DNA of 22,943 nt, taken from positions 1-22,943 of the IMG/VR virus record IMGVR_UViG_3300048591_000512. One strand, 5' to 3'. Made by a program: the position numbers and the translations under genes. The DNA comes from a virus. The notes beneath the pieces are model-generated. The model ran no database searches, had not been told where the DNA came from, and worked only from the letters and a program-made list of their open reading frames with translations. Below are positions 2,776 through 19,497 of the stretch, piece by piece; position 1 is the first letter of the stretch; each line of letters begins with the position of its first letter.

Positions 2776-3816
2776 TTAGGTCAACGGCTGGCAATTATCC
2801 AAAAAAGCTTTTAGTTGTGTAGCCTCGCGGTTAAAGTCAACCTTTGACGTAAATACATTATACACATTTTGGCGCATAGCTTCATAGTGGGCAGGTTGGT
2901 TAAAGTGCAATATTTTGTTTATTATTTGCTGTGTTTCTAGCCCATCAATAGCAATACAGGTTTCGCCGTCGACCATTAGCTGCCCCGCTAGTTTGCCGGC
3001 ATAGTATTGCATAACCACAATTGGCGGCACGCCCATTGCGTAAGCATTATGGATTACGTGCCCATACCCATCGCCGCCCGATTTTGCATGCCACACAAAC
3101 CGGCTACGGCCCATAAGCTCGGCCATTATTTTTTGCCCATTGGCAGCGCCATCGCGGCATGAGCCGCCCAGCGATTTAAAGACCCAATCCGGCATTAGTT
3201 TTTCCACGCGGGTAAACGTAGCCCAATCGTGCTGGTACAGGCTGGCGGATTGGTAGCAGTTAATAAACGAGGTTATGGTATTGGTTTCGGTAGTGGGCAT
3301 CGGCTTAAACACGCTCGTATCAAATTCTTGGTGGTATTCCACAATAGTAAACCCATCGGGGTGGTTAGGTAGCAGGGCGCTGGCCATTATATTTTTGATA
3401 GGCTGGGCAGGGTCAATTTCCCACGCATTGCCAACTTGAAAAATAACCCGTGGTTTATTGGGGTGGTCTTGGGCCAGCTTGTAAAAACTAGGTATATGCG
3501 CCGGGATAGTGGCAATAACAAAATCAATGGGCAGCGCCATAAACTTTTCAACCGTAATAGCGTTATGGTTGTAGTTATATTCGGGGTCATACGCAAGGTA
3601 ATGGCCGGGGCTGGGGTTGGGGTAGTCGGGCCTAATACCCAAATACTGCGCCACGGTTAGCGGGTGGTTATTATATATTTCTGCCATGCGCCAGTAGCCG
3701 CGGTGTAGCCAATCCTCACCCAAGGGCCGGTATAACGTGCCGGCAAACCGCTGCTCTATGAGCAAGTAAAGTGAGTGATACAAACTAAAATGATGTAAGT
3801 CAGTAAATACATTCAT
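2776..3816 (-). CDS. GT-B-like glycosyltransferase
   Basis: A 346-residue protein from the ATG at 3816, giving MNVFTDLHHFSLYHSLYLL, a start typical of a phage glycosyltransferase group. The frame is open 39 nt further up to a GTG, but that extension is AT-repeat translation. YRPLGEDWLHRGYWRMAEIY follows. The second half has VIFQVGNAWE, then SRFVWHAKSGGDGYGHVIHNA and AMGVPPIVVMQYYAGKLAG, which correspond to the donor-binding end of GT-B enzymes. No SD is seen at the ATG. It is transcribed from a separate promoter with a structured leader and may be expressed differently from the upstream enzymes. Confidence 0.75.
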   Translation of the reverse strand: MNVFTDLHHFSLYHSLYLLIEQRFAGTLYRPLGEDWLHRGYWRMAEIYNNHPLTVAQYLGIRPDYPNPSPGHYLAYDPEYNYNHNAITVEKFMALPIDFVIATIPAHIPSFYKLAQDHPNKPRVIFQVGNAWEIDPAQPIKNIMASALLPNHPDGFTIVEYHQEFDTSVFKPMPTTETNTITSFINCYQSASLYQHDWATFTRVEKLMPDWVFKSLGGSCRDGAANGQKIMAELMGRSRFVWHAKSGGDGYGHVIHNAYAMGVPPIVVMQYYAGKLAGQLMVDGETCIAIDGLETQQIINKILHFNQPAHYEAMRQNVYNVFTSKVDFNREATQLKAFLDNCQPLT

Positions 3817-3972
3817 AATTATGTTAGTGGTTATATATATAGGACACTCCCCCACTCGCTATGATGTGCCACTATTTTAATTTTTAGCCTGGTGTAACCC
3901 CTCCCCTATTGGGTTTTTACGGTAGGGGAGTCGGGTTTCTTTCGGGTTTTTACCTGTATATAACTATTTTTC
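3817..3972 (-). promoter_or_regulatory. Structured 5' leader with competing helices
   Basis: This is the longest stretch without a gene in the window. On the minus strand ACTCCCCTA (3931-3923) can pair with TAGGGGAG (3908-3901) in a perfect 8-bp stem with a 14-nt loop. Alternatively its ACTCCCC can pair over 7 bp with GGGGAGT in the GGGGGAGT block (3853-3846). The two pairings exclude each other, as in attenuators. GTAAAAACCC occurs twice (3953-3944 and 3920-3911). There is no U-tract after the hairpin, so it is not a plain terminator, and no known riboswitch class is recognised. Confidence 0.35.
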
Positions 3973-3978
3973 CTACGG

Positions 3979-4007
3979 TATTTATTAGGGTTTTCTAACT
4001 ATATCAA
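3979..4007 (-). promoter_or_regulatory. Promoter with long leader before the last glycosyltransferase
   Basis: TTGATA (4007-4002) and TAAATA (3984-3979) lie 17 nt apart on the minus strand. The -35 overlaps the stop codon of the third GT-A gene. Transcription should start near 3972, leaving a leader of about 155 nt before the ATG at 3816. Confidence 0.5.
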
Positions 4008-4693
4008 ACTCTATCACGTATGTTTTGCACCATGTTAACAAACATGGGGTGCAAGGGTACGCCCACTTCAAGCGCCTCGGTTGCCCATGTTTTAAATGCT
4101 TGTGGTTGGTAGGTAATGGGCTGCCCCTCACATGCCAGCCGCCAATTATGGCTCAGGCCGTTATAGTGAAAATATAGCTCGGGCGGTATAACCACGGGCA
4201 CAATGCTGGCGCGCTGCAGGTCTATTTGTATGCGGCCAAAGTGGTCATACTCCGGCGGCTTGGCGCTAAAATCCTTATGGGTTTTGTTAAGCGCCTCACG
4301 GCTTAAAAATATGCTGCACGGGTGCATGCGATCACCTTGGTAAACCGCCACGCAATCGGCATTGATGTGGCTATCAACAAACTCAAAAAACCCCGGCTTA
4401 GGTATAAAGTCTTGCTCGGTAAACCAAAGGTGCGGGGCATTGTAGCTGTGCAGTAGTGATTGGTTAACGGCAGCATTACGCCAATCATCGCCCGCGGGTG
4501 TATGGCTTTCAATAAAATGGGCACGGGTAGTAAACAAGCTCTCGCGCACAAACGGGCTATAATCAAACCCCGCGTTGGTTTCCATAAACGCAATAATAAT
4601 TTCATTAAACCGGTGGCGCTCCCGTGCAAGCATTGCCCTGAATTGTGGGTAATCGCAGTTTTTAGGCCACGTGGTTACTACATCAAAAACCAT
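4004..4693 (-). CDS. GT-A-like glycosyltransferase (third of three)
   Basis: A 229-residue protein, shorter than its two neighbours. The metal/donor motif is APHLWFTEQDFIPKPGFFEF (86-105), in which EQD replaces EDD and the following PKPG matches the FKPG of the second copy. GDDWRNAAVNQSLLHS (68-83) precedes it. The C-terminal part has PEYDHFGRIQIDLQ and FHYNGLSHNW, where aspartate and histidine residues could complete an active site. Lack of the C-terminal helical region suggests a minimal catalytic domain. It is the last gene before the longest intergenic stretch, and its stop codon overlaps the -35 box of a promoter. Confidence 0.7.
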   Translation of the reverse strand: MVFDVVTTWPKNCDYPQFRAMLARERHRFNEIIIAFMETNAGFDYSPFVRESLFTTRAHFIESHTPAGDDWRNAAVNQSLLHSYNAPHLWFTEQDFIPKPGFFEFVDSHINADCVAVYQGDRMHPCSIFLSREALNKTHKDFSAKPPEYDHFGRIQIDLQRASIVPVVIPPELYFHYNGLSHNWRLACEGQPITYQPQAFKTWATEALEVGVPLHPMFVNMVQNIRDRV

Positions 4694-5669
4694 TGACCAC
4701 CTCCGCGGTTATCCGCTGCCGCTGTTTAATACGTTTTAGGCTTAACCCAAACTCGCCAATTAAACGGTCAATACCTTTTTTATATTTATCAGCCTGTTCT
4801 ACTAACGCCCCCGGCTCCCGGTTTTCCCAAAAGGTTAACCACCACTGTACCCGGCGCTCATACTCGCGCTTTTCAAAATCATTAGTGGGGCGGGCGGGTA
4901 GTGGTTTGTTAGTATCCAGTAAGTTATTGTAGCCGCTTGATAATGAGCCAATATGTAGCCAGTTTGCCTGACCATCCCAAATGCTTTTGCGGGTACGGTA
5001 ATGCTCATAATCATCGGGGTGTAAATGGTATTGCGGTATGGTTAGTATGCGCTCTTTAGCCACCACGCCACGCAGCTGTAGCGATGCATCAACAAAGGTG
5101 TCGCCGGCTTGGTCATGTTCAGCGGGCACATTAAACGGCTTGATTATGTCGCCCTTTGCCCAAAACTTTGCCCCGTAGTTATCCACGCCGCGCAGTATGT
5201 ATGCGTGGGTAAAGAAATAGCAGGGCCAAAAACTAGGGCCTTGGTCGCCGTAGCCCTCATACGATAAACCCCATGTGTTTTGCGCCAATTTTAGTATTTG
5301 GGTGCCACATGAGCCACGCTTTGAGCCAACTATGTCGTACGTGTCGTTTTCCAGGTACCTAAAACAATGCGCCACATGCCCCGGCTTAAAAATAAGCCCG
5401 TCATCCTCAACTAACATAATGTCGGTTTCTTTTACCGTTTCCAATGTGGTGGCAATGGCCTGCCCATGCTCTTGCTGGGTGGGGCTATAACTAACCACGG
5501 CATACCGTTTGTATAAATCGTGTATGTAATCAAAGGTTTCCTGGTCTGCTCCGTTAACGTGCATGTATAGTTTGTCAATTTCCAAGCGCCATACCCGGTC
5601 AAATAGCTTTAGCCAGTAGTGTAATAGGAATGGGTCGCCCGGTGTGGGTAAAATTGCTGCCCTACTCAT
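4683..5669 (-). CDS. GT-A-like glycosyltransferase (second of three)
   Basis: A 328-residue protein resembling its upstream neighbour: RAAILPTPGDPFLLHYWLKL (3-22) and TDIMLVEDDGLIFKPGHV (82-99), with the DXD-like EDD at 88-90. Further on are GSKRGSCGTQI (a likely sugar-contacting loop) and EHDQAGDTFVDASLQLRG, with acidic residues typical of the acceptor side of GT-A enzymes. YHLHPDDYEHYR may supply the last metal-binding histidine. The C-terminal 80 residues are helical and charged. It starts on an ATGA overlap and overlaps the next start by 11 nt. Confidence 0.8.
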   Translation of the reverse strand: MSRAAILPTPGDPFLLHYWLKLFDRVWRLEIDKLYMHVNGADQETFDYIHDLYKRYAVVSYSPTQQEHGQAIATTLETVKETDIMLVEDDGLIFKPGHVAHCFRYLENDTYDIVGSKRGSCGTQILKLAQNTWGLSYEGYGDQGPSFWPCYFFTHAYILRGVDNYGAKFWAKGDIIKPFNVPAEHDQAGDTFVDASLQLRGVVAKERILTIPQYHLHPDDYEHYRTRKSIWDGQANWLHIGSLSSGYNNLLDTNKPLPARPTNDFEKREYERRVQWWLTFWENREPGALVEQADKYKKGIDRLIGEFGLSLKRIKQRQRITAEVVNGF

Positions 5670-6748
5670 AGTTTTGCCTCAAATAATTGGTGAAATATGC
5701 CTTGCACTTGTTTTATTAGCTTTTTGTCCAGGTTAAAACGCGCTGTAATCCAGTCTAACTCGGTTTTGGCGTGCTGGTGGTATTTGCCTATGCCCTTAAA
5801 ATCATTTGCGGTCATAAACTCGCGCAAAAGTGCCAGTTTAAACATTTTGTCATTGCGCCACGGCTTTTGCATAGCAAAAAATGCCTCATGTTCTAAATTG
5901 CGCGCCACCGGCCCACCGCTTTGGGTTTCCAATTGCTCGCGCTCGCCTAAGTCGTAATACAGGCCGGCTATGTGGTATGCCATGGTTTGCAAATGCAAGT
6001 AGGTAAGCGGGGCGGCAAATAACCCCTCGCTATTTTTAAAGTCGTCAATAAACTGCTGCAAACCCCTGGGGTGGTGTATGTAGTTGGTAAACTCTATTTT
6101 TGGTATAGGGTGTATGTGTGCGCCCTGGGCGTATAACTCAAGGTTAAACTTAAAGTTTGTGTCGCTTTCAAACGGTCTATAGGCAGGTGTCCAGTCAAGT
6201 AATGGGCTGTATTCGCCAACGGGTACCACGTATTGCCCAAAATCCCGGCTACTGCCTGCAAAATACTTGCCCGGCACAAAGGTAAAGTTCAAGTAATAAC
6301 TAAAATAGTCGCTGTTATCCACAACCACGGGCACTTGTGTGGAATACTTTTTTACCATCAATTCTTCAACCAGTTGGCCTGGCGTATATATAGCGTGCAT
6401 GGTAGTAACCACTTCGCCTGTTTTTTCCACATGTTTAAAGTAGTTATCCACAACGCCGCGCTTAAATATCAGTAAATCATCGTGCATCAAACATACCGCG
6501 TCAGCCTCAATAGTGGCGGCAACCTGGTTTATGCTATTGGGCCAGTTAGTGTTAGTGTTTACCAGGGTAACTTTTGGCAGGGTAGCAATGTATTTCTCAA
6601 TCCACGGCCACGGTTTTGCATGCACTGGCTGGGATACGGCAATATATACCTGGTCAACCTCATCAAGCCAGTATTTTTGCGCCAGGTGTAGCCAGTACAA
6701 AATTAAATAGGGGTAAGCGTTAGTGCCAACCAACACGGCGCGCTTCAT
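5666..6748 (-). CDS. GT-A-like glycosyltransferase (first of three)
   Basis: A 360-residue protein. It opens RAVLVGTNAYPYLILYWLHL (3-22) and has a GT-A-type donor site with a DXD-like motif at AVCLMHDDLLIFKRG (84-98), with metal ligands expected at Asp90-Asp91. A middle region with strands and aromatic residues (YYLNFTFVPGKYFAG) and a helical C-terminal 120 residues complete it. The opening and the HDD/IFKRG block closely resemble the next gene, so they are likely paralogues. It overlaps the nucleotidylyltransferase stop by 4 nt and the next gene by 4 nt. Donor and acceptor are unknown. Confidence 0.75.
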   Translation of the reverse strand: MKRAVLVGTNAYPYLILYWLHLAQKYWLDEVDQVYIAVSQPVHAKPWPWIEKYIATLPKVTLVNTNTNWPNSINQVAATIEADAVCLMHDDLLIFKRGVVDNYFKHVEKTGEVVTTMHAIYTPGQLVEELMVKKYSTQVPVVVDNSDYFSYYLNFTFVPGKYFAGSSRDFGQYVVPVGEYSPLLDWTPAYRPFESDTNFKFNLELYAQGAHIHPIPKIEFTNYIHHPRGLQQFIDDFKNSEGLFAAPLTYLHLQTMAYHIAGLYYDLGEREQLETQSGGPVARNLEHEAFFAMQKPWRNDKMFKLALLREFMTANDFKGIGKYHQHAKTELDWITARFNLDKKLIKQVQGIFHQLFEAKL

Positions 6749-7159
6749 GTAAGCCTTTTTTTAATATCAGTGGTGCTAATGTCTTTAGTGTAGGGTATGT
6801 AGGCCAAGGCAATGTTTTTGCTGTCCAGCCAATCTTGGGTAAACCCCATTTGCTTGTAATAGTCTCGTTTTGCCCAGTCACTACCAATGGCAATGACATT
6901 TGGTTTAACCCACTCAATAGCCGGCTTGCTATCCTGGTCGCCTATATTACTAACCACCCTAGCCACCCACTTGCAGCCCAGCAATGCCTTTTTGCGCTCA
7001 ATGTAGCTCATTACTGGCGGTTTGCCCTTAAACTTGGCAATAAACTCATCACTGTTGAGCGCCACGGTTACAATGCCAAATTGGTGGCAGCGCTCTAAAA
7101 AACTAACATGCCCCCAGTGAAGTAAATCAAAAGGTGCCCCCGGTATAGACCGAGTTCAT
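6745..7159 (-). CDS. Nucleotidylyltransferase (TagD-like), needs +1 frameshift
   Basis: The gene opens with ATG at 7159 (GAGG about 4 nt upstream) and reads MNSVYTGGTF, then hits TGA at 7129-7127. Shifting +1 at TTT-TGA continues as DLLHWGHVSFLERC and on to the end. The 137-residue product is the normal length for TagD-like cytidylyltransferases. It has GGTFDLLHWGH (7-17) with the HxGH nucleotide-binding motif, TVALNSDEF (31-39), IERKKAL (53-59) and ISTTDIKKR (127-135), the family's closing signature. It would make a CDP- or ADP-linked glycerol, alditol or sugar, a donor for the nearby transferases. Without the shift only a tiny peptide or an N-terminally deleted protein lacking HWGH (GTG at 7065) is made. 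Sequencing error or decay after the upstream HNH insertion are alternatives. The stop overlaps the next start by 4 nt. Confidence 0.85.
7127..7141 (-). promoter_or_regulatory. Candidate programmed +1 frameshift site
   Basis: The minus strand reads GGGGG-CACC-TTT-TGA-T in the initial frame. The last sense codon TTT is followed by T, so the phenylalanine tRNA can slip one base and re-pair perfectly with TTT, bringing GAT (Asp) into the A site. A UGA stop in the zero frame and a GGGGG block just upstream mirror the prfB site (AGGGGG-TAT-CTT-TGA), though the spacer here is 4 rather than 3 nt. GGGGG also acts as apparent SD for two genes here (starts 13686 and 2137). Confidence 0.6.
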
Positions 7160-7173
7160 AATTCCTCACTTTC

Positions 7174-7677
7174 TCATGCTTGGGGTTTCCAAGTCTTATA
7201 GGCAGCTATTTGATAAACAGTTGATATTGATATATCAAACATTTTTGCCAAGTCATTGGCCCTTGTTTTCTTTTTGCTCCATAATTCTCTCAACTCTTTT
7301 ACCTTTTCATAAGTCATCACCGCATTGCTGTTTTTTTCACCAAATATTATTGGTGGTTTATTTCCCCTGGGTGGGTCTGTTTTTCTACCGGCAGCAATAC
7401 AGTCTTGTATATTTTCTTTTTGACTACCCCATCGTAGGTGATTGGGATTACAACAACCGGGGTTATTGCAATTATGTAACACTAGCTTTCCATCTTCTAT
7501 TTTTCCGCCGTTATAAAATATAAGTGCTAATCGGTGGGCGCTGTGTGTTTTTTTGTTAATTCTAAACCATCCATATCCAAAATGATGCTTAGAGGCAGAC
7601 CAGTACCAACACGATCTTTTATTGGTAACTTTTACCTTTGACCAAAAGCGTATTTCATCATTTTTTGTGTAATCCAT
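7174..7677 (-). CDS. HNH homing endonuclease with C-terminal DNA-binding domain
   Basis: A 167-residue mobile endonuclease. The N-terminal HNH_3-type nuclease domain shows CWYWSASKHHFGYGWFRI (23-40), AHRLAL (47-52), LVLHNCNNPGCCNPNHLRWG (65-84) and ENIQDCIAAGR (88-98). The catalytic histidine is in the VLHNC segment, and NPNHL forms the metal site. After a GEKNSNAVMT hinge (113-122), residues 123-165 form a helix-turn-helix (KTRANDLAKMFDISISTVYQI). The gene is visibly richer in A and T than its neighbours. It stands alone between the methyltransferase and nucleotidylyltransferase genes with only 19 and 14 nt around it, too little for an intron, so it is a free-standing homing gene. Confidence 0.9.
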   Translation of the reverse strand: MDYTKNDEIRFWSKVKVTNKRSCWYWSASKHHFGYGWFRINKKTHSAHRLALIFYNGGKIEDGKLVLHNCNNPGCCNPNHLRWGSQKENIQDCIAAGRKTDPPRGNKPPIIFGEKNSNAVMTYEKVKELRELWSKKKTRANDLAKMFDISISTVYQIAAYKTWKPQA

Positions 7678-7683
7678 ACGCTA

Positions 7684-7689
7684 ATTATA
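7684..7689 (-). promoter_or_regulatory. Perfect -10 box just ahead of the HNH gene
   Basis: TATAAT (7689-7684) ends 6 nt before the ATG of the HNH gene. No convincing -35 box is found 16-19 nt upstream (CAAGTG is the best there). The exact spacing matches three other genes in the window. Confidence 0.4.
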
Positions 7690-7696
7690 ACATGCT

Positions 7697-8371
7697 CTAT
7701 ACGCCCCACTTGTAATCAACTTGCTCATCAACTTTGTAAAACCCGGTTAACCCGCGTGGGGTGGCAAAGTGGAATGGCCGCAGCATATCCCGGCGCACAT
7801 AGTCTTTAATGACATTAGGCAACCTGCCCCAGGGCCACGCAAACCCATGCTCGCTGTTATCAACTTGCCCCATGTGTCCGTTTAAATCGTGTATAAATAT
7901 AAACCCGCCCGGTAGTACATAATCATAAAAGCGCACTAGCTCGGCAAAGCGTAGTTGTGGCTCGGTATCAAGCAAAACCAGCTTATACCGTGCATCAGGT
8001 TCAGGGTTCCACTTGGTAACGTCAGCCTCGAGGTTTCGTATCCATGGTTTAAACCCGGCTTTTTCAAATCGGCGGTCTGCCTCGCGGTAATGCTCTGGTA
8101 TAAACTCCAGCGTATCAAGCAAACCAAAGCCATTGTCCTGTAGCGCTTGGGCTATATACATGGCGCCAATGCCTTGGTGCGTGCCGGTTTCCAGCACGTT
8201 TTTAGGTTTTAACACCCTGGTCATGGCGTATAAAAACTCGCCCACCTCACACTCAACGCCAGCATCATTAAACGCGGCATATTGCCGGGCCACATCGCCA
8301 CCCGACCACAAAGACTCGGACACGGGGTCAACCCCCAGGGCTGTAACTATTTTTTTAGTAATGTCTAACAT
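7697..8371 (-). CDS. Class I SAM-dependent methyltransferase
   Basis: A 224-residue protein from the ATG at 8371 (opening MLDITKKIVTALGVDP). A GTG 15 nt upstream is possible, but GGAG stands 9 nt before this ATG. The fold is that of Methyltransf_24/CmcI-like enzymes: VLETGTHQGIGAMYIAQAL (59-77) is the SAM-binding loop, LVLLDTEP (132-139) the acidic strand, and LPGGFIFIHDLNG (153-165) motif III. Enzymes of this type often O-methylate sugars or small molecules. Placed among glycosyltransferases, it may cap or modify the phage-made glycan. The start overlaps the upstream stop by 7 nt. Confidence 0.85.
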   Translation of the reverse strand: MLDITKKIVTALGVDPVSESLWSGGDVARQYAAFNDAGVECEVGEFLYAMTRVLKPKNVLETGTHQGIGAMYIAQALQDNGFGLLDTLEFIPEHYREADRRFEKAGFKPWIRNLEADVTKWNPEPDARYKLVLLDTEPQLRFAELVRFYDYVLPGGFIFIHDLNGHMGQVDNSEHGFAWPWGRLPNVIKDYVRRDMLRPFHFATPRGLTGFYKVDEQVDYKWGV

Positions 8372-9357
8372 AAAACTTTGCTCCACTGCTCTTTAATAAA
8401 CTGCTTGCCAAATAGCTCAATAGCGGTTTGTCTGCCCGCAGCCGATATTGCCCTGGCCGCTCGCTTGTCCTTAACAAGTAAGTCAATTTTACTGCGCAAA
8501 TACTCTAAATCATCGCTCACAAAACCGTTATAACCATCCTGGATTATATCGGGTATTTCATACACCTTGCCGGCTATGTTTAGGCTGTTACCATATTTCT
8601 CGCCAACCGCCACAATCGGGCAGCCGGTCATCATGGCTTCAATAAACGATAGGGTATAGCTGGCAGGTTGGGTGCCGGTATACACATAAACCCGAGCATC
8701 GCGCATTTTTTGCTTCATGCCGTCGTATGACAAAAACCCACCATTTAACGGCCCCATTTGCTCATTTTTAGGGCCATAGACATGGGCATTAAACCCGTGC
8801 ATAAGTTGTTGGCAGGCGGTCACGTTTAAATACTCGCCCCGGTGTTTCATGTTTTGGGCAAAAGTAATAACCTCGGTGCCACCACCAGACCAGTGGTTAA
8901 ACTCGCGCTCGTCTTTATAAAACCGTATTAGGTGGTCAGCGCCTATATTACCGTCAATGTTTATTTCCCGTGGGCTATAGCGGATTACCTCCAAACCTTG
9001 TTTGCGGTATGGCGCAAGTTTAGCCTCAACCGCCGGGGTGCTTTGGCCAATACTGCGCCAAATAACCCGCTTATGCTTAATGCTTTCCCAATTCTCGGTA
9101 ATCCACTCCGGCACGTGCATAACGATAATAACGTCAAATTGCTCAACGTAGGACATGGTTAGTTTATTGCGCTCCGGCGCTGGCTGGTCATACATGGTTT
9201 GCGGTGGGTGGTAGGTTAGGGCAGGGCGGATAGGGTCGGCAGGCGCCCAAGGTAATATGTATGAGCCAAGGCTAAAATACTTAATGCCAAGCTCCTCAAA
9301 CAGTTTTAGCTCGTCATGCTCTAGTATGGAATGTGCGCTTAAGTATAGTATGGTCAT
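8365..9357 (-). CDS. GT-B glycosyltransferase
   Basis: A 330-residue protein of GT-B build. An N-terminal half with VEQFDVIIVMHVPEWI and RVIWRSIGQSTP is followed by a C-terminal half with DARVYVYTGTQPASYTLSF and IEAMMTGCPIVAVG (239-252), including Glu240 at the usual donor-binding position. The closing helices (ISAAGRQTAIELFGKQFI) are typical. The RGEG motif of its upstream neighbours is replaced by GTQPASYTLSF, so donor use may differ. It overlaps the neighbours on both sides. Specific substrate cannot be told. Confidence 0.87.
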   Translation of the reverse strand: MTILYLSAHSILEHDELKLFEELGIKYFSLGSYILPWAPADPIRPALTYHPPQTMYDQPAPERNKLTMSYVEQFDVIIVMHVPEWITENWESIKHKRVIWRSIGQSTPAVEAKLAPYRKQGLEVIRYSPREINIDGNIGADHLIRFYKDEREFNHWSGGGTEVITFAQNMKHRGEYLNVTACQQLMHGFNAHVYGPKNEQMGPLNGGFLSYDGMKQKMRDARVYVYTGTQPASYTLSFIEAMMTGCPIVAVGEKYGNSLNIAGKVYEIPDIIQDGYNGFVSDDLEYLRSKIDLLVKDKRAARAISAAGRQTAIELFGKQFIKEQWSKVLC

Positions 9358-10484
9358 GGTGTTGCCTTTGGCTCTAGTGATTTTCTAATTTCTAACAATC
9401 GTTGGTTCATTAAACCGCCCACGGTCTTGAGGTTAAACTTGTTTTTTACCACAAGTTTTCCACAATCGCCCATGGCCTTAGCTTGTTTTTGGTTTTCAAA
9501 CACCCACCGCATTGCCTTGCGTAGATCAGGTATAGACACATCGGCCCACTGTTGGTCGGGTGTATACCAGTTAGTATTGCGGTTATTGTTTACGGGTGCC
9601 ATTTTGTAGGGTAGTAGGTAGGCGTCTTGCATGTGGGTTAAATACTCATGGATACCCCCAGCGCCCGTGCTTATGATCGGGTTTCCCATTAGCAGCGCCT
9701 CCATTTGGGGTATGCCCCAGCCCTCGCCACGGTGGGGTGATACGTAGCAGTCAAAGGTGGTGTGTAGGCGGTAAATTTGGCGCCTATCCATAAGCTGCCG
9801 GTATAGGTAAATAGGGGCATAACTGCGCAGGCGCAAGCGTTTTTGCAGCTTTTTTATTTTCTGGTCAATTTCGGTTTTCTTATGTGGTTGAAAGTTATCC
9901 ACATAGGTCTTTAGGGTAAGCGATACGCCCTGGGCACCCTCAAACTCGCGCCAGTATGCCTCAAGTAGTGCGGCTGGGTTTTTGCGCTCCGTCCACTCAA
10001 ATATGCTATAAAAGCGGTAATCGCCATCGTTGGCGGTTAGGTATGGCTTAAACGGCTCCACGTTGGTGTCAATAGCCTCGGGTATTATATAAATTGGCTT
10101 AGTAACCCCAGCGGCCCGTATGGCATCGGCATTGTATTGGCTGCCCGTCCATATTTCATCGCACATTTGCGCCCCGGTGGCAAACTCGAGGGGTAGTTTG
10201 TTAGTTTCCCAAAACACGCGCCCCACGTGATATTTGCCCGGCTCTAGGTACTGCCTAATAACATTGGGGGTGGTGTGTATTATTTTTACTTGGTAGCCAA
10301 TAGGGTTGTTTTCCAAACCCCGGCCAATAGCGCCCATCGGGCCAAAATCGGCAATTTCTATGGTGTAGTGGGGTATTTCAGTGGTAACCGTTACCCCAGC
10401 CTCAACCAACGCCGCCACATCATGCCGGGCAGCCTCGCCATAACCGCTGTAGTCGCATAGTGGGCCGGTGTATTTAACTCTCAT
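9354..10484 (-). CDS. GT-B glycosyltransferase (GT4-like)
   Basis: A 376-residue enzyme with both Rossmann-like halves. The N-terminal acceptor side has YTGPLCDYSGYGEAARHDV (5-23) and a VGRVFWETNKLP segment (87-98). The donor side has SIFEWTERKNPAALLEAYWR (160-179), then SPHRGEGWGIPQMEALLMG (249-267), where Glu262 is the expected catalytic/binding acid, and GAGGIHEYL. Glycine-rich SGYGEAAR openings are common in phage and lipopolysaccharide GT4 enzymes. It starts inside the zinc-ribbon gene and overlaps the next glycosyltransferase by 4 nt (ATGA), so these are made together. Confidence 0.9.
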   Translation of the reverse strand: MRVKYTGPLCDYSGYGEAARHDVAALVEAGVTVTTEIPHYTIEIADFGPMGAIGRGLENNPIGYQVKIIHTTPNVIRQYLEPGKYHVGRVFWETNKLPLEFATGAQMCDEIWTGSQYNADAIRAAGVTKPIYIIPEAIDTNVEPFKPYLTANDGDYRFYSIFEWTERKNPAALLEAYWREFEGAQGVSLTLKTYVDNFQPHKKTEIDQKIKKLQKRLRLRSYAPIYLYRQLMDRRQIYRLHTTFDCYVSPHRGEGWGIPQMEALLMGNPIISTGAGGIHEYLTHMQDAYLLPYKMAPVNNNRNTNWYTPDQQWADVSIPDLRKAMRWVFENQKQAKAMGDCGKLVVKNKFNLKTVGGLMNQRLLEIRKSLEPKATP

Positions 10485-10665
10485 TAGCTATCCATTTGTC
10501 AGCTTCGTAATACAGGGTAGCACCGCAATTGTGGCAAATGCGTGGTTTTTTAAACACCTCCGGTGTATTAGCATAAAATGCTCTGCCGGTACACGCGTGG
10601 CAGTAAAACCGATACGCTGGCACGCTAGGCGCCTTAGTTTCCGCTTTTTTAGCTTTGGCATCCAT
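10474..10665 (-). CDS. Small zinc-ribbon protein
   Basis: A 63-residue protein with a basic, alanine-rich start (MDAKAKKAETKAP) and a four-cysteine zinc ribbon: CHAC (22-25) and CHNC (44-47), with YYEADKWI after it. A strong GGAGGTGA SD lies 6 nt upstream of the ATG. Its stop overlaps the following glycosyltransferase gene by 11 nt. Why a zinc ribbon sits among sugar enzymes is unclear; it may bind a partner protein or nucleic acid. Confidence 0.75.
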   Translation of the reverse strand: MDAKAKKAETKAPSVPAYRFYCHACTGRAFYANTPEVFKKPRICHNCGATLYYEADKWIANES

Positions 10666-10681
10666 ATACTATCACCTCCGT

Positions 10682-11893
10682 TTAGGTAAAACGCTCTAAC
10701 GGTAAAATGTTGCCCGAGCGTTGTTTTACGGGCAGCGGTTGCCGCCGTATATCATCAAGCACGGCCTTGAGCTTCCGCGCGGTTTCCTCAATAGTCCATT
10801 TTTTAACATACTCCGAGGCCCGCTTACCCATTTTACGCGATTGGCTCTCGTGTTCATAGGCAAAACGCATTTGGCGGCGCAGGTCGGCCACATCGCATAC
10901 CACCATATTGCCAACGTCCTGGCCTTTATAGCGCAAATACAAACCCGGGCAAGTGCCGCTAACCTTAACCTCATACATATAATCTTTATTAAAGTATTCA
11001 CTTATGCCATGGGCATTGGGTACAATCGCCGGCATGCCGGTGGCCATTGCCTCAAGCGGGGTAACCCCAAACCCCTCACCCCGGCTAGGAAATACAAAAC
11101 AATCGGCGTTGGTTAGTATGTTATTTAACTGCGCCTTAGTAGCCTTGCCCGTAATAACCTCAATGTTTGGGTACTGCGATTTTATAATAGGTATAGGCGT
11201 GCGGTTCAGGGTAGTTTTTAACACCAGGGTTACCGGCTCATCGCGCCTAAACTCTTGCGTAAACGCATTAAATACCTCCATAAACCCTTTGCGGGCATTA
11301 AAGGCGTTGTAGTGTAAAAAGGTAAAGTTGCGCCGTTGCGCGCGCACTGGCTTGCGCTCAACATACTTAAACGTATCAGCATCATAGCCAAGCGGCACCA
11401 CTTGTGCTGCATAGCCGGCTTTAGCAAATACACCCTGGCACCAGGCGCTAGGCACTAGGATTAAGTCGGCAGCGTCCAGGTAGTCGTGCCACTCATCAGG
11501 TATGCGGTCACTCTCAAACATGGTGTAAATAATGCGGTAAGGTGCCTCGATCTGCAAAATACCATAGGGCGCGTGAAATAGTATGGCTATGTTTTGTTTA
11601 TCGTAGTAGGTTTTAATTTGCTCACCTAGCTTAGTAAGTTGTTTTATGAGTAAGTGGCTGGCCATGCCGTACCCATCGGCACCGCCCTGGGTAACCGTGG
11701 CCATATATAACCCAAGCGCCGGGTCATTATTTGCCTGCTGTGCCCGTAGCACCTCGGCATACTTCTCGGCCTGTAGCTCTTTTACCTCATCGTCGGTAGC
11801 TTTCCTAAACCCCGGCTGCCTTAGCCAATCCTCAAACCGTTTAATATCGTCTACGGCGGTTATTTTACCCGATGGGCTGACTAAATATGGCAT
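10682..11893 (-). CDS. GT-B glycosyltransferase (GT4-like) with N-terminal extension
   Basis: A 403-residue protein. Residues about 70-395 form a GT-B glycosyltransferase: GGADGYGMASHLL near the start, YTMFESDRIPDEW (123-135), VPLGYDADTF (166-175) and the nucleotide-sugar-binding FPSRGEGFGVTPLEAMATG (268-286) with Glu281 of the EX7E-type motif. It should transfer a sugar from an activated donor; the acceptor is unknown. Residues 1-45 (MPYLVSPSGKITAVDD, then QPGFRKATDDEVKEL) are not part of the GT fold and look like a separate small domain. It opens a block of sugar enzymes after the capsid terminator and has its own promoter. Confidence 0.9.
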   Translation of the reverse strand: MPYLVSPSGKITAVDDIKRFEDWLRQPGFRKATDDEVKELQAEKYAEVLRAQQANNDPALGLYMATVTQGGADGYGMASHLLIKQLTKLGEQIKTYYDKQNIAILFHAPYGILQIEAPYRIIYTMFESDRIPDEWHDYLDAADLILVPSAWCQGVFAKAGYAAQVVPLGYDADTFKYVERKPVRAQRRNFTFLHYNAFNARKGFMEVFNAFTQEFRRDEPVTLVLKTTLNRTPIPIIKSQYPNIEVITGKATKAQLNNILTNADCFVFPSRGEGFGVTPLEAMATGMPAIVPNAHGISEYFNKDYMYEVKVSGTCPGLYLRYKGQDVGNMVVCDVADLRRQMRFAYEHESQSRKMGKRASEYVKKWTIEETARKLKAVLDDIRRQPLPVKQRSGNILPLERFT

Positions 11894-18027: not shown

Positions 18028-19497
18028 TTATTTGCCTATTATTGGGGTTATTTCTTGCCACGCTTCCTCTTGGCCGATTAGTTTAGCATATCGTTTTCTT
18101 ATAACGTCGCAATACTTAGGGTCAAGCTCCATCATGAAACAAGTGCGGTTGGTTTGTTCACAAGCGACAAGGGTAGAACCTGAGCCACCAAATAAATCAA
18201 GACAAAGCTCATCCTCTCTACTGCTTGTTTTTATTGCTCTTGCACATAATTCAATAGGCTTCGGTGTGGCGTGGTCGGTGTTTTGAACATCACGATTAAA
18301 CCTCCACACATTGTTCATATTGTCATGGGTATTATTAAAATATGCCCTTGTAGCGTAGTAGTCCTTTTTGATTTCCTCGTAGTCCTTTTTGAATGCCTCG
18401 TTTTTTGCCAAATCTTGTAACATTTTGTATTTTTCTTCTGTTGGTATTTCCCATTGGCTTTTACTAAACCAGTGAAGTCGAGGATCAATGTTTAGTTGTT
18501 CAGCAATCCATTTGTCTGTCCATCCTAATTTCTTCTTCTCACCTTCTAAATAAAGTCTAACTGGTTCCCATGCTTCGTAATAATTGTCTTGGTTAGTATT
18601 AAATCCCTGCACCCCAGTCATCACAAATAACAACTTTTCGTCAGCGATGGCATACATTCGAAATTCTTCGCTATTTTGTCCTTGCCCGCCTCCTTTGTCC
18701 CAGGTAATCAGGTTTCTAAATGTAATTTTGTTTTCTTTGATGTACGGCTTGAGAATGAACACATAAATATCCATCAACGGCTCATCCGTTCCCCAACAAT
18801 ACCAGCTGCCGTTGTCTTTTAAGTGTGTAAATGTTAGCGGTATCCATTGTTTGTTAAACTCAAGCAAGTCATCATAGTTTAGATTGTCGTTAAGCACTCC
18901 CTCATTCTCTTTTTTCATCCCATACGGCGGATCAGTAAACACCATGTCCGCCTTTTGCCCATCCATTAGCCTTTCCACATCCTCAATCTTCGTGCTATCG
19001 CCACACATCAACCTGTGTCTACCCAGTTGATACACCTCACCCAACTCACTCACGGGTTCGTCCGGCGGTGTAGCGTCAAACTCGTCCTCCTCTGGCTCTG
19101 GACCAAACTTGCCCAATAATTCCTCAATGCTTATTTGCTTGCCTAAATCAACCATGTAGTCGCCCAAATCAATATCAATGCCCTGCACCAACTCGGCTAG
19201 TTGTTGGTCTAGGTAATACCCGGCCCGGTCATTATCGCTTAGGGCAAACTCAACCATGCGCGCCTCAGTTTGTGCATCAACTACACTAACCGGCACCTCG
19301 TCAATGCCAAGCTCTTGGTATGCTTTTAGGCGCATATTACCGCCCAATACCACATTGTCTTGGTTTATGAGTAGTGGTTTGTATATACCCAGGTTTTTTA
19401 TTTGCTTTTTTAGCCGCTCGTAATCCTTTTTATTTATAGCCCTGGGGTTTTTATCCCAACCTGTTAGGTGTGATAGTTTGCGTGTTTGGGTGTTCAC
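18028..19497 (-). CDS. ParB-like domain fused to DNA adenine/cytosine-N4 methyltransferase
   Basis: A 489-residue fusion. Residues 1-95 form a ParB/Srx-like domain: NPRAINKKDYERLKKQI, then LLINQDNVVLGGNMRLKA with the GGNMR motif at 52-56. After an acidic linker (about 133-150) comes an amino-methyltransferase. The catalytic motif TDPPYGM is at 188-194 and the SAM-binding FGGSGSTLVA at 436-445. Catalytic motif before SAM motif is the beta-class order, and DPPY fits N6-adenine or N4-cytosine methylation. Phages use such enzymes to protect DNA from host restriction. The gene overlaps the upstream one by 4 nt and abuts the small terminase gene with no gap. The methyltransferase part looks less biased in base use than the ParB part and neighbours. 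Confidence 0.92.
   Translation of the reverse strand: MNTQTRKLSHLTGWDKNPRAINKKDYERLKKQIKNLGIYKPLLINQDNVVLGGNMRLKAYQELGIDEVPVSVVDAQTEARMVEFALSDNDRAGYYLDQQLAELVQGIDIDLGDYMVDLGKQISIEELLGKFGPEPEEDEFDATPPDEPVSELGEVYQLGRHRLMCGDSTKIEDVERLMDGQKADMVFTDPPYGMKKENEGVLNDNLNYDDLLEFNKQWIPLTFTHLKDNGSWYCWGTDEPLMDIYVFILKPYIKENKITFRNLITWDKGGGQGQNSEEFRMYAIADEKLLFVMTGVQGFNTNQDNYYEAWEPVRLYLEGEKKKLGWTDKWIAEQLNIDPRLHWFSKSQWEIPTEEKYKMLQDLAKNEAFKKDYEEIKKDYYATRAYFNNTHDNMNNVWRFNRDVQNTDHATPKPIELCARAIKTSSREDELCLDLFGGSGSTLVACEQTNRTCFMMELDPKYCDVIRKRYAKLIGQEEAWQEITPIIGK

What the first reader, a model, noticed from the sequence alone, without database searches (positions are those of the whole stretch)
7127..7141. prfB-like +1 frameshift site in a phage nucleotidylyltransferase gene
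Seen: ATG at 7159 gives MNSVYTGGTF then TGA; the +1 frame continues DLLHWGH exactly where the family motif requires it, and stays open to a family-typical end (ISTTDIKKR). The junction is TTT-TGA with a fourth T, so perfect re-pairing is possible, and a GGGGG block lies 4 nt upstream. Known: prfB uses AGGGGG-TAT-CTT-TGA for +1 shifting, controlled by release factor 2. Inference: the phage gene may be regulated by RF2 level or UGA decoding speed. A caution is that GGGGGCACCTTT also simply encodes the conserved GGTF, so only the extra T is unexplained; it may be a one-base insertion or read error.
Basis: partly seen in the sequence, partly recalled or inferred. Interest (0 to 1): 0.85.

Follow-up and report, generated by a model that had tools for sequence, protein, structure and literature searches.

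The report
Homing-endonuclease cassette with rescuing ribosomal frameshift
In at least 16 different uncultured phages the same sugar-nucleotide enzyme gene carries one extra T that forces ribosomes to slip, always together with (or beside the remains of) a selfish DNA-cutting gene, which suggests the cutter travels with a one-letter 'do not cut me' mark and the phage rescues its damaged gene by ribosomal slippage.

Summary
On the minus strand a cytidylyltransferase-like gene (PF01467) starts at 7159, reads MNSVYTGGTF, then meets TTT-TGA; the +1 frame continues DLLHWGH to a family-typical end. The same extra T, always TTTT, at the same GTF|D codon boundary occurs in 15 further distinct IMG/VR loci. 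It occurs in no true family member among 84,980 bacterial and archaeal genomes, and none of the annotated phage relatives examined is interrupted.

The unexpected part is the company it keeps. Twelve of the 16 have a full or near-full homing-endonuclease gene directly upstream (HNH_3 here, endonuclease-VII type mostly, one GIY-YIG), one is cut by a contig edge, and three keep an endonuclease tail scar. Searching with the endonuclease alone, 10 of 10 relatives sit beside the shifted gene. None of 175 intact genes has these endonucleases. In the closest near-isogenic pair the only indels are the endonuclease insert and the single T.

Best explanation: a mobile cassette (endonuclease, strong ribosome-binding site, new gene start, +1 T) in which the T blocks self-cleavage and a prfB-like +1 frameshift rescues the gene. 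It resembles T4 mobA/gene 60 bypassing, reduced to one nucleotide. Cleavage protection and frameshift efficiency remain untested.

The parts
7174..7677 (-). HNH_3 homing-endonuclease-like ORF (167 aa), HNH core H-CNNPGCCNP-HL intact, C-terminal helix-turn-helix
   Evidence: PF13392 E 1.7e-9, HTH_7 weak; 60% identical to the HNH ORF at the same place in L086
7164..7167 (-). Shine-Dalgarno GAGG for the nucleotidylyltransferase start, just after the endonuclease stop
   Evidence: sequence; anti-SD pairing energy -7.8 kcal/mol, stronger than typical intact relatives
7127..7159 (-). zero-frame leader ORF MNSVYTGGTF-stop (N-terminus and GGTF half of the nucleotide-binding motif)
7137..7141 (-). GGGGG, SD-like element inside the conserved GG codons, 4 nt before the slippery codon
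   Evidence: GGAGG/GGGGG in 9/15 shifted vs 25/94 intact alleles
7129..7132 (-). TTTT: Phe slippery codon TTT plus the extra T
   Evidence: TTTT in every shifted allele
7127..7129 (-). zero-frame UGA stop created by the extra T in front of the Asp codon
6745..7128 (-). +1-frame body of the nucleotidylyltransferase (DLLHWGH ... ISTTDIKKRLT)
   Evidence: PF01467; no loss of family-invariant residues
7697..8386 (-). upstream neighbour, methyltransferase-like gene (left flank of the cassette)
   Evidence: PF13578
5666..6748 (-). downstream neighbour, 360-aa ORF without a Pfam hit whose ATG overlaps the nucleotidylyltransferase stop; part of a glycosyltransferase-rich cluster

Best explanation
The feature is the right-hand end of a mobile homing-endonuclease cassette. 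The cassette consists of an endonuclease gene inserted at the start codon of a phage cytidylyltransferase-like gene, a strong ribosome-binding site and new start codon for that gene, and the first ~10 codons of the gene with one T added at the GTF|D border. Inferred working: the endonuclease recognises and cuts the highly conserved GGTFDxxHxGH coding site in phages lacking the cassette, and repair copies the cassette in (homing). The added T destroys the site in the carrier, so it is not cut. The gene stays usable because the T sits where a +1 ribosomal shift is easy: tRNA-Phe on UUU in front of a UGA followed by a pyrimidine slips to UUU in the +1 frame, often helped by an SD-like GGAGG/GGGGG. 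A strong SD supplied by the cassette offsets the loss at the shift. Shown: the T is real, recurrent, cassette-linked, and bounds a tract shared between cassettes. Inferred: that the ribosome shifts, that the gene product is made, and that the T blocks cleavage.
For: (1) The same TTT-TGA shift occurs in 12 viral contigs with the GTF/HxGH pattern and in further GSF or HxNH variants: 16 distinct loci with the window. The 8 pattern hits in 84,980 prokaryote genomes are all chance, and a one-base-deletion control gave 9 hits, none a family member. (2) Endonuclease link: 12/16 full or near-full endonuclease directly upstream, 1 cut by the contig edge, 3 tail scars. HMMs of these endonucleases hit 0 of 175 intact loci, and one intact locus has an unrelated GIY-YIG ORF. 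(3) Independent direction: searching with the endonuclease VII-type protein only, 10/10 full relatives lie next to a shifted gene. (4) Shifted genes are scattered in the family tree (12 changes, at least 8 forced by supported branches); 8 of 8 independent pairs agree with endonuclease trace (p=0.008), about 6 of 8 for a full-length endonuclease (p=0.03). (5) Near-isogenic pair L085/L180: 94% and 93% identical flanks, the only indels being the ~580-nt endonuclease insert and the T. (6) Cassette border: L088, L092 and L227 share an identical 21-nt tract up to the T but only ~35% of same-aa codons after it. Shifted pairs have codon identity 0.55 in the tract vs 0.39 downstream; intact pairs 0.38 vs 0.37. 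Endonuclease identity does not track enzyme identity. (7) Shift codon TTT 15/15 vs 58/94. (8) Stronger start-site SD: median -9.1 vs -5.1 kcal/mol, p 8e-7. (9) No lesion elsewhere and family-invariant residues kept.
Against: No cleavage, homing or frameshift experiment exists. Purifying selection acting after the T arose is not proven: in the best sister pair (L089/L091) the endonuclease is less diverged than the enzyme gene, so the cassette may be younger than the dN/dS signal. Three alleles keep the T after losing the endonuclease. The SD-like stimulator is missing in 6 of 15 alleles. UUU_U is described as a rare RF2 shift site that may be disfavoured by tRNA-Phe modification (PMC5009743). 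No conserved downstream RNA structure was found. Only two HNH and one GIY-YIG cassette were found, so for them the link rests on few cases.
Confidence: 0.66

Rival explanations
1. Passive damage: endonuclease insertion brings a T that simply inactivates the enzyme gene; the phage does without it and the remaining frame is not yet decayed.
For: Post-shift selection could not be dated cleanly; phages can lose accessory glycosylation genes.
Against: 16 distinct loci with no second lesion and with catalytic columns intact; the cassette supplies a strong SD, start codon and a rebuilt in-frame N-terminus for the gene; the slip codon is always TTT; all three alleles that lost the endonuclease keep an open +1 frame.
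Confidence: 0.15
2. Hitch-hiking: the T is rescued by frameshifting but has no protective role; it is an accident in the co-converted tract of an early cassette that spread with the endonuclease.
For: The tract containing the T is shared between cassettes, so a single origin plus recombination could explain many copies.
Against: The T occurs with three unrelated nuclease families (HNH_3, endonuclease VII, GIY-YIG) and with different flanking codons (GGCACC, GGTACG, GGCACA); 10/10 endonuclease VII cassettes have it with none lacking it, as expected if an unprotected carrier is not viable.
Confidence: 0.13
3. Regulatory frameshift: expression set by RF2 level or UGA decoding speed, like prfB.
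For: UUU-UGA, pyrimidine after UGA, GGGGG 4 nt upstream in the window; SD-like element enriched among shifted alleles, 9/15 vs 25/94.
Against: SD-like element absent in 6/15; no reason for such regulation to coincide with an upstream endonuclease; minority state within the family; the gene product is not a release factor.
Confidence: 0.05
4. Sequencing or assembly error adding a T to a T-run.
For: Single-base difference in a short homopolymer in metagenomic assemblies.
Against: Same T in 17 contigs from many metagenomes, two of them identical over 4.5 kb; none among prokaryotic family members and no matching deletions; strict link to an endonuclease.
Confidence: 0.01

Closest known systems
T4 mobA / gene 60 translational bypass (byp) cassette
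   Same: Free-standing endonuclease next to a host gene that carries an extra out-of-frame sequence; translational recoding (there a UGA right after the take-off codon and a 50-nt hop) restores the product; the extra sequence is thought to protect from cleavage (Atkins 2016, PMC5009743; PMC3014915).
   Different: There 50 nt are skipped with help of nascent peptide and stem-loop in one phage gene, and mobA has also split gene 39; here one nucleotide, a +1 slip, no structure found, an unsplit gene, at least 16 phage loci and three nuclease families. Protection not tested here.
Collaborative homing (F-CphI / psbA group I intron, cyanophage S-PM2)
   Same: Free-standing endonuclease of the endonuclease VII motif type next to a target gene whose carrier allele has an insertion that prevents self-cleavage (PMC6083498).
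   Different: The protecting insertion there is a group I intron removed by splicing; here it would be one base tolerated by ribosomal frameshifting.
prfB (release factor 2) programmed +1 frameshift
   Same: Early in-frame UGA directly after a codon whose tRNA can re-pair on UUU in +1; SD-like element just upstream in 9 of 15 alleles; pyrimidine after UGA.
   Different: UUU instead of CUU; SD spacing 4 rather than 3 nt (the 3 nt for prfB from own knowledge) and not universal; gene is a cytidylyltransferase, so no autoregulation by RF2; shift linked to a mobile endonuclease.
Glycerol-3-phosphate cytidylyltransferase (TagD, 1COZ) / CTP_transf_like family
   Same: GTFDLLHWGH motif and ISTT C-terminal motif.
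   Different: Scores far below the TagD equivalog cutoff (67.9 vs 165.4), so substrate unknown; coding sequence is split by the +1 shift.

Membership tests
prfB-type programmed +1 frameshift site | P-site codon able to re-pair in +1 directly before an in-frame UGA | tested here: met
   TTT-T-GA in all shifted alleles
prfB-type programmed +1 frameshift site | internal Shine-Dalgarno at fixed spacing upstream | tested here: inconclusive
   GGAGG/GGGGG in 9/15, spacing 4 nt
prfB-type programmed +1 frameshift site | C after UGA | tested here: inconclusive
   GAC in 10/15, GAT in 5/15 including the window; not different from intact alleles, p 0.16
prfB-type programmed +1 frameshift site | product is release factor 2, giving autoregulation | tested here: not met
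   PF01467 nucleotidylyltransferase
prfB-type programmed +1 frameshift site | measured efficient +1 shifting | not testable with these tools
   needs reporter or mass spectrometry
Free-standing homing endonuclease | HNH, GIY-YIG or endonuclease VII nuclease domain with catalytic residues | tested here: met
   PF13392 and PF02945 above cut-off; GIY-YIG 20.4 bits, just below its cut-off of 22.6; DHxH..R..CN motif kept
Free-standing homing endonuclease | optional insertion between conserved genes, empty-site alleles exist | tested here: met
   L085/L180, L090/L146 pairs; no empty-site relative of the window itself was found
Free-standing homing endonuclease | spreads between backgrounds | tested here: met
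   endonuclease and target-gene identities uncorrelated among 9 cassettes (rho 0.12); shared tract
Free-standing homing endonuclease | cuts cassette-free allele near the insertion site | not testable with these tools
   needs cleavage assay
Endonuclease plus protecting recoded insertion (mobA-byp type) | endonuclease and out-of-frame insertion always together | tested here: met
   10/10 endonuclease VII relatives with the T; 0/175 intact loci with these endonucleases
Endonuclease plus protecting recoded insertion (mobA-byp type) | insertion blocks cleavage by the cognate endonuclease | not testable with these tools
   needs cleavage assay
Endonuclease plus protecting recoded insertion (mobA-byp type) | 50-nt bypass with take-off and landing codons | tested here: not met
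   single nucleotide insertion
CTP_transf_like nucleotidylyltransferase (PF01467) | HxGH and C-terminal ISTT motifs, full profile coverage | tested here: met

The most novel reading that the evidence does not exclude
Unrelated homing endonucleases (HNH, endonuclease VII type, GIY-YIG) have converged on the same trick: target a coding motif so conserved that synonymous changes cannot hide it, and mark the self allele by a single inserted base at the one spot where the motif's own codons (Gly-Gly as SD, Phe as slip codon, Asp turned into UGA) form a ready-made +1 frameshift site. Recoding is thereby used as self/non-self discrimination by a selfish element.
Probability: 0.45. Interest if true: 0.88.

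Novelty: new variant of a known kind. Interest (0 to 1): 0.82.

Why it matters
T4 gene 60 bypassing has long been described as a one-off whose origin was blamed on an endonuclease. If this reading holds, recoding as protection of a homing endonuclease is a recurrent strategy, can be as small as one base, and has arisen or spread across many phages and three nuclease families. It also explains a class of 'broken' phage genes that gene callers and error filters would discard, gives natural sites for studying +1 shifting at UUU-UGA, and makes a testable claim about why some programmed frameshifts exist at all: not for regulation but as scars that selfish DNA needs.

Tried and rejected
Sequencing error or chance: rejected by the prokaryote scan (8 chance hits only), the deletion control and recurrence. 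Direct initiation in the +1 frame: no ATG/GTG/TTG between the upstream stop and the Asp codon in 12 of 15 alleles; in 3 there is a GTG without an evident SD. A phage-encoded frameshift-suppressor tRNA: none in the window or 14 shifted contigs apart from one tRNA-Cys. Downstream RNA structure as stimulator: shifted and intact alleles do not differ. Evidence of selection from the L089/L091 pair (omega 0.15): set aside, because differences begin right after the T and the endonuclease is younger. Coding-difference excess left of the T in L084/L018 (7/21 vs 30/330, p 0.003) is suggestive, but most other pairs do not show it. Cultured phages: relatives listed by protein search all start in frame and a 58-nt cassette query found only intact Streptomyces phage genes. 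Literature searches found no report of an endonuclease-linked +1 frameshift; the library is incomplete.

Full report
What is in the sequence. On the minus strand of the window a cytidylyltransferase-like gene starts with ATG at 7159, after a Shine-Dalgarno GAGG at 7167-7164. It reads MNSVYTGGTF and then meets TGA at 7129-7127. The stop arises because four Ts (7132-7129) stand where the family needs three; one base on, the frame continues DLLHWGH and runs to a normal family end at 6745. Restored across the T, the 137-residue protein matches PF01467 over nearly its whole length and B. subtilis glycerol-3-phosphate cytidylyltransferase, which has the same GTFDLLHWGH motif. It falls well below the TagD equivalog threshold, so the substrate is open.

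The extra T is real and recurrent. A DNA pattern that demands the T at the GTF|D border, with the rest of the motif intact, hits 12 IMG/VR contigs, and every one is a true family member with TTTT. Relaxing the motif and searching from the endonuclease side adds L224, L227/L228 and L256. With the window that makes 16 distinct loci on 17 contigs; L227 and L228, from two metagenomes, are identical over 4504 bases. The same pattern in 84,980 bacterial and archaeal genomes gives eight hits, none of which encodes the enzyme. A control pattern with one T too few gives nine viral hits, none the enzyme. The cultured and annotated phage relatives listed (103 records matched, best rows and a spread inspected) start in frame. 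Error and chance are therefore out.

The T goes with an endonuclease. Among the 16, twelve have a full or near-full endonuclease ORF ending within about 50 nt of the enzyme start: HNH_3 (window, L086), GIY-YIG (L082; its Pfam score is just under the curated cut-off) and endonuclease VII type, PF02945 (L083, L084 via L231, L085, L089, L090, L091, L092, L224, L227; the L224 ORF ends about 15 residues early). L256 is cut by the contig end inside an endonuclease VII gene. L087, L088 and L093 keep only short tail-like scars: AGGTGATGCCAATGCC in L087, AGAAAAGAGGTGATGCC in L088, and YLEKYAKGGDA coding in L093. HMMs of these endonucleases find none of them upstream of 175 intact genes. One intact gene has an unrelated GIY-YIG ORF nearby (L185). 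The converse search is free of circularity: the endonuclease VII alignment alone pulls out ten full relatives, and all ten sit beside a shifted gene. Fisher p-values are below 1e-14, but rows are related. On the tree, supported branches give 8 independent pairs, all agreeing when scars count (p 0.008), and about 6 of 8 when only full-length endonucleases count.

It is a cassette that moves. Shifted genes are scattered through the family tree: 12 changes, at least 8 forced by supported branches. Their nearest neighbours are often intact genes: L085 and L180 are 98% identical in protein, L084 and L018 93%. In L085 versus L180 the left flank is 94% and the right flank 93% identical, and the only two indels are about 580 nt of endonuclease at the enzyme's start codon and the single T. 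L090/L146 and L093/L062 show the same insertion point. The stretch from the new start to the T behaves as part of the cassette: L088, L092 and L227 are identical there but share only about 35% of same-aa codons beyond it. Over all divergent pairs, shifted alleles agree in 55% of tract codons against 39% downstream, while intact alleles agree in 38% and 37%. Endonuclease relatedness does not follow enzyme relatedness.

How the gene is probably read. In 12 of 15 alleles no ATG, GTG or TTG lies in the +1 frame upstream of the Asp codon, and in the other 3 there is only a GTG without an evident SD; a start further in would lose the HxGH motif. The slip codon is always TTT (15/15 against 58/94 in comparable intact genes, p 0.002). 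A GGAGG or GGGGG 4 nt upstream is enriched but not universal (9/15 against 25/94). The base after TGA is C in 10 and T in 5. UUU_U is used by a minority of RF2 genes according to a review (PMC5009743). There is no special downstream structure and no suppressor tRNA. The cassette gives the gene a markedly stronger ribosome-binding site (median -9.1 against -5.1 kcal/mol, p 8e-7), which makes sense if only part of the ribosomes shift. Family-invariant residues are retained. That the ribosome really shifts is inference.

Why the T is there. Free-standing homing endonucleases cut a neighbouring conserved gene in phages that lack them and must not cut their own copy. Two precedents are described in the literature read: an intron that blocks F-CphI (an endonuclease VII-motif enzyme) from cutting its own psbA, called collaborative homing (PMC6083498), and the 50-nt bypassed insert of T4 gene 60, thought to protect against the endonuclease that entered gene 39/60 (PMC5009743; PMC3014915). 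Here the insertion would be one base. The GGTFDxxHxGH site is so conserved that synonymous changes might not protect, and it is built so that one T between Phe and Asp makes a prfB-like shift site. This protective role is the least proven step; about two in three is my estimate for the whole chain.

Limits. All shifted loci are metagenomic. The set of intact genes was capped and partly chosen by similarity. Only two HNH and one GIY-YIG cassette were seen. Selection after gain of the T could not be dated: the L089/L091 pair gives omega 0.15, but its differences start right after the T and its endonuclease is less diverged, so the cassette is probably younger than the gene divergence. A dead-gene reading keeps about 15%.

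The frameshift reading is likely right. RF2-level regulation is not supported. The mobile-cassette context is the finding.

Noticed in passing
window 2776-11893: Run of glycosyltransferase-like genes, a methyltransferase and the nucleotidylyltransferase directly beside what look like the head genes on the same strand, suggesting virion glycosylation.
   Followed up: partly
window 18028-19497: DNA methylase (N6_N4_Mtase, PF01555) fused behind a ParB N-terminal domain.
   Followed up: no
L277 (PP889473.1 region) 1486-2990: HNH_3 relative of the window endonuclease sits directly upstream of DNA ligase in Klebsiella podoviruses with a 4-bp overlap; a second possible endonuclease-target pair worth checking for recoding.
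   Followed up: partly
L082, shifted gene at 7217 on the minus strand: The GIY-YIG linked enzyme continues into a second domain (VDIDDTLL ... LFTARG, HAD-like) after the nucleotidylyltransferase part.
   Followed up: no
L185 around 9532: An intact nucleotidylyltransferase gene with a GIY-YIG-like ORF just upstream, the only endonuclease-like neighbour among intact loci.
   Followed up: partly
L224, endonuclease before the shifted gene: Endonuclease VII-type ORF ends about 15 residues early, probably by an indel, while the shifted enzyme gene stays open.
   Followed up: no
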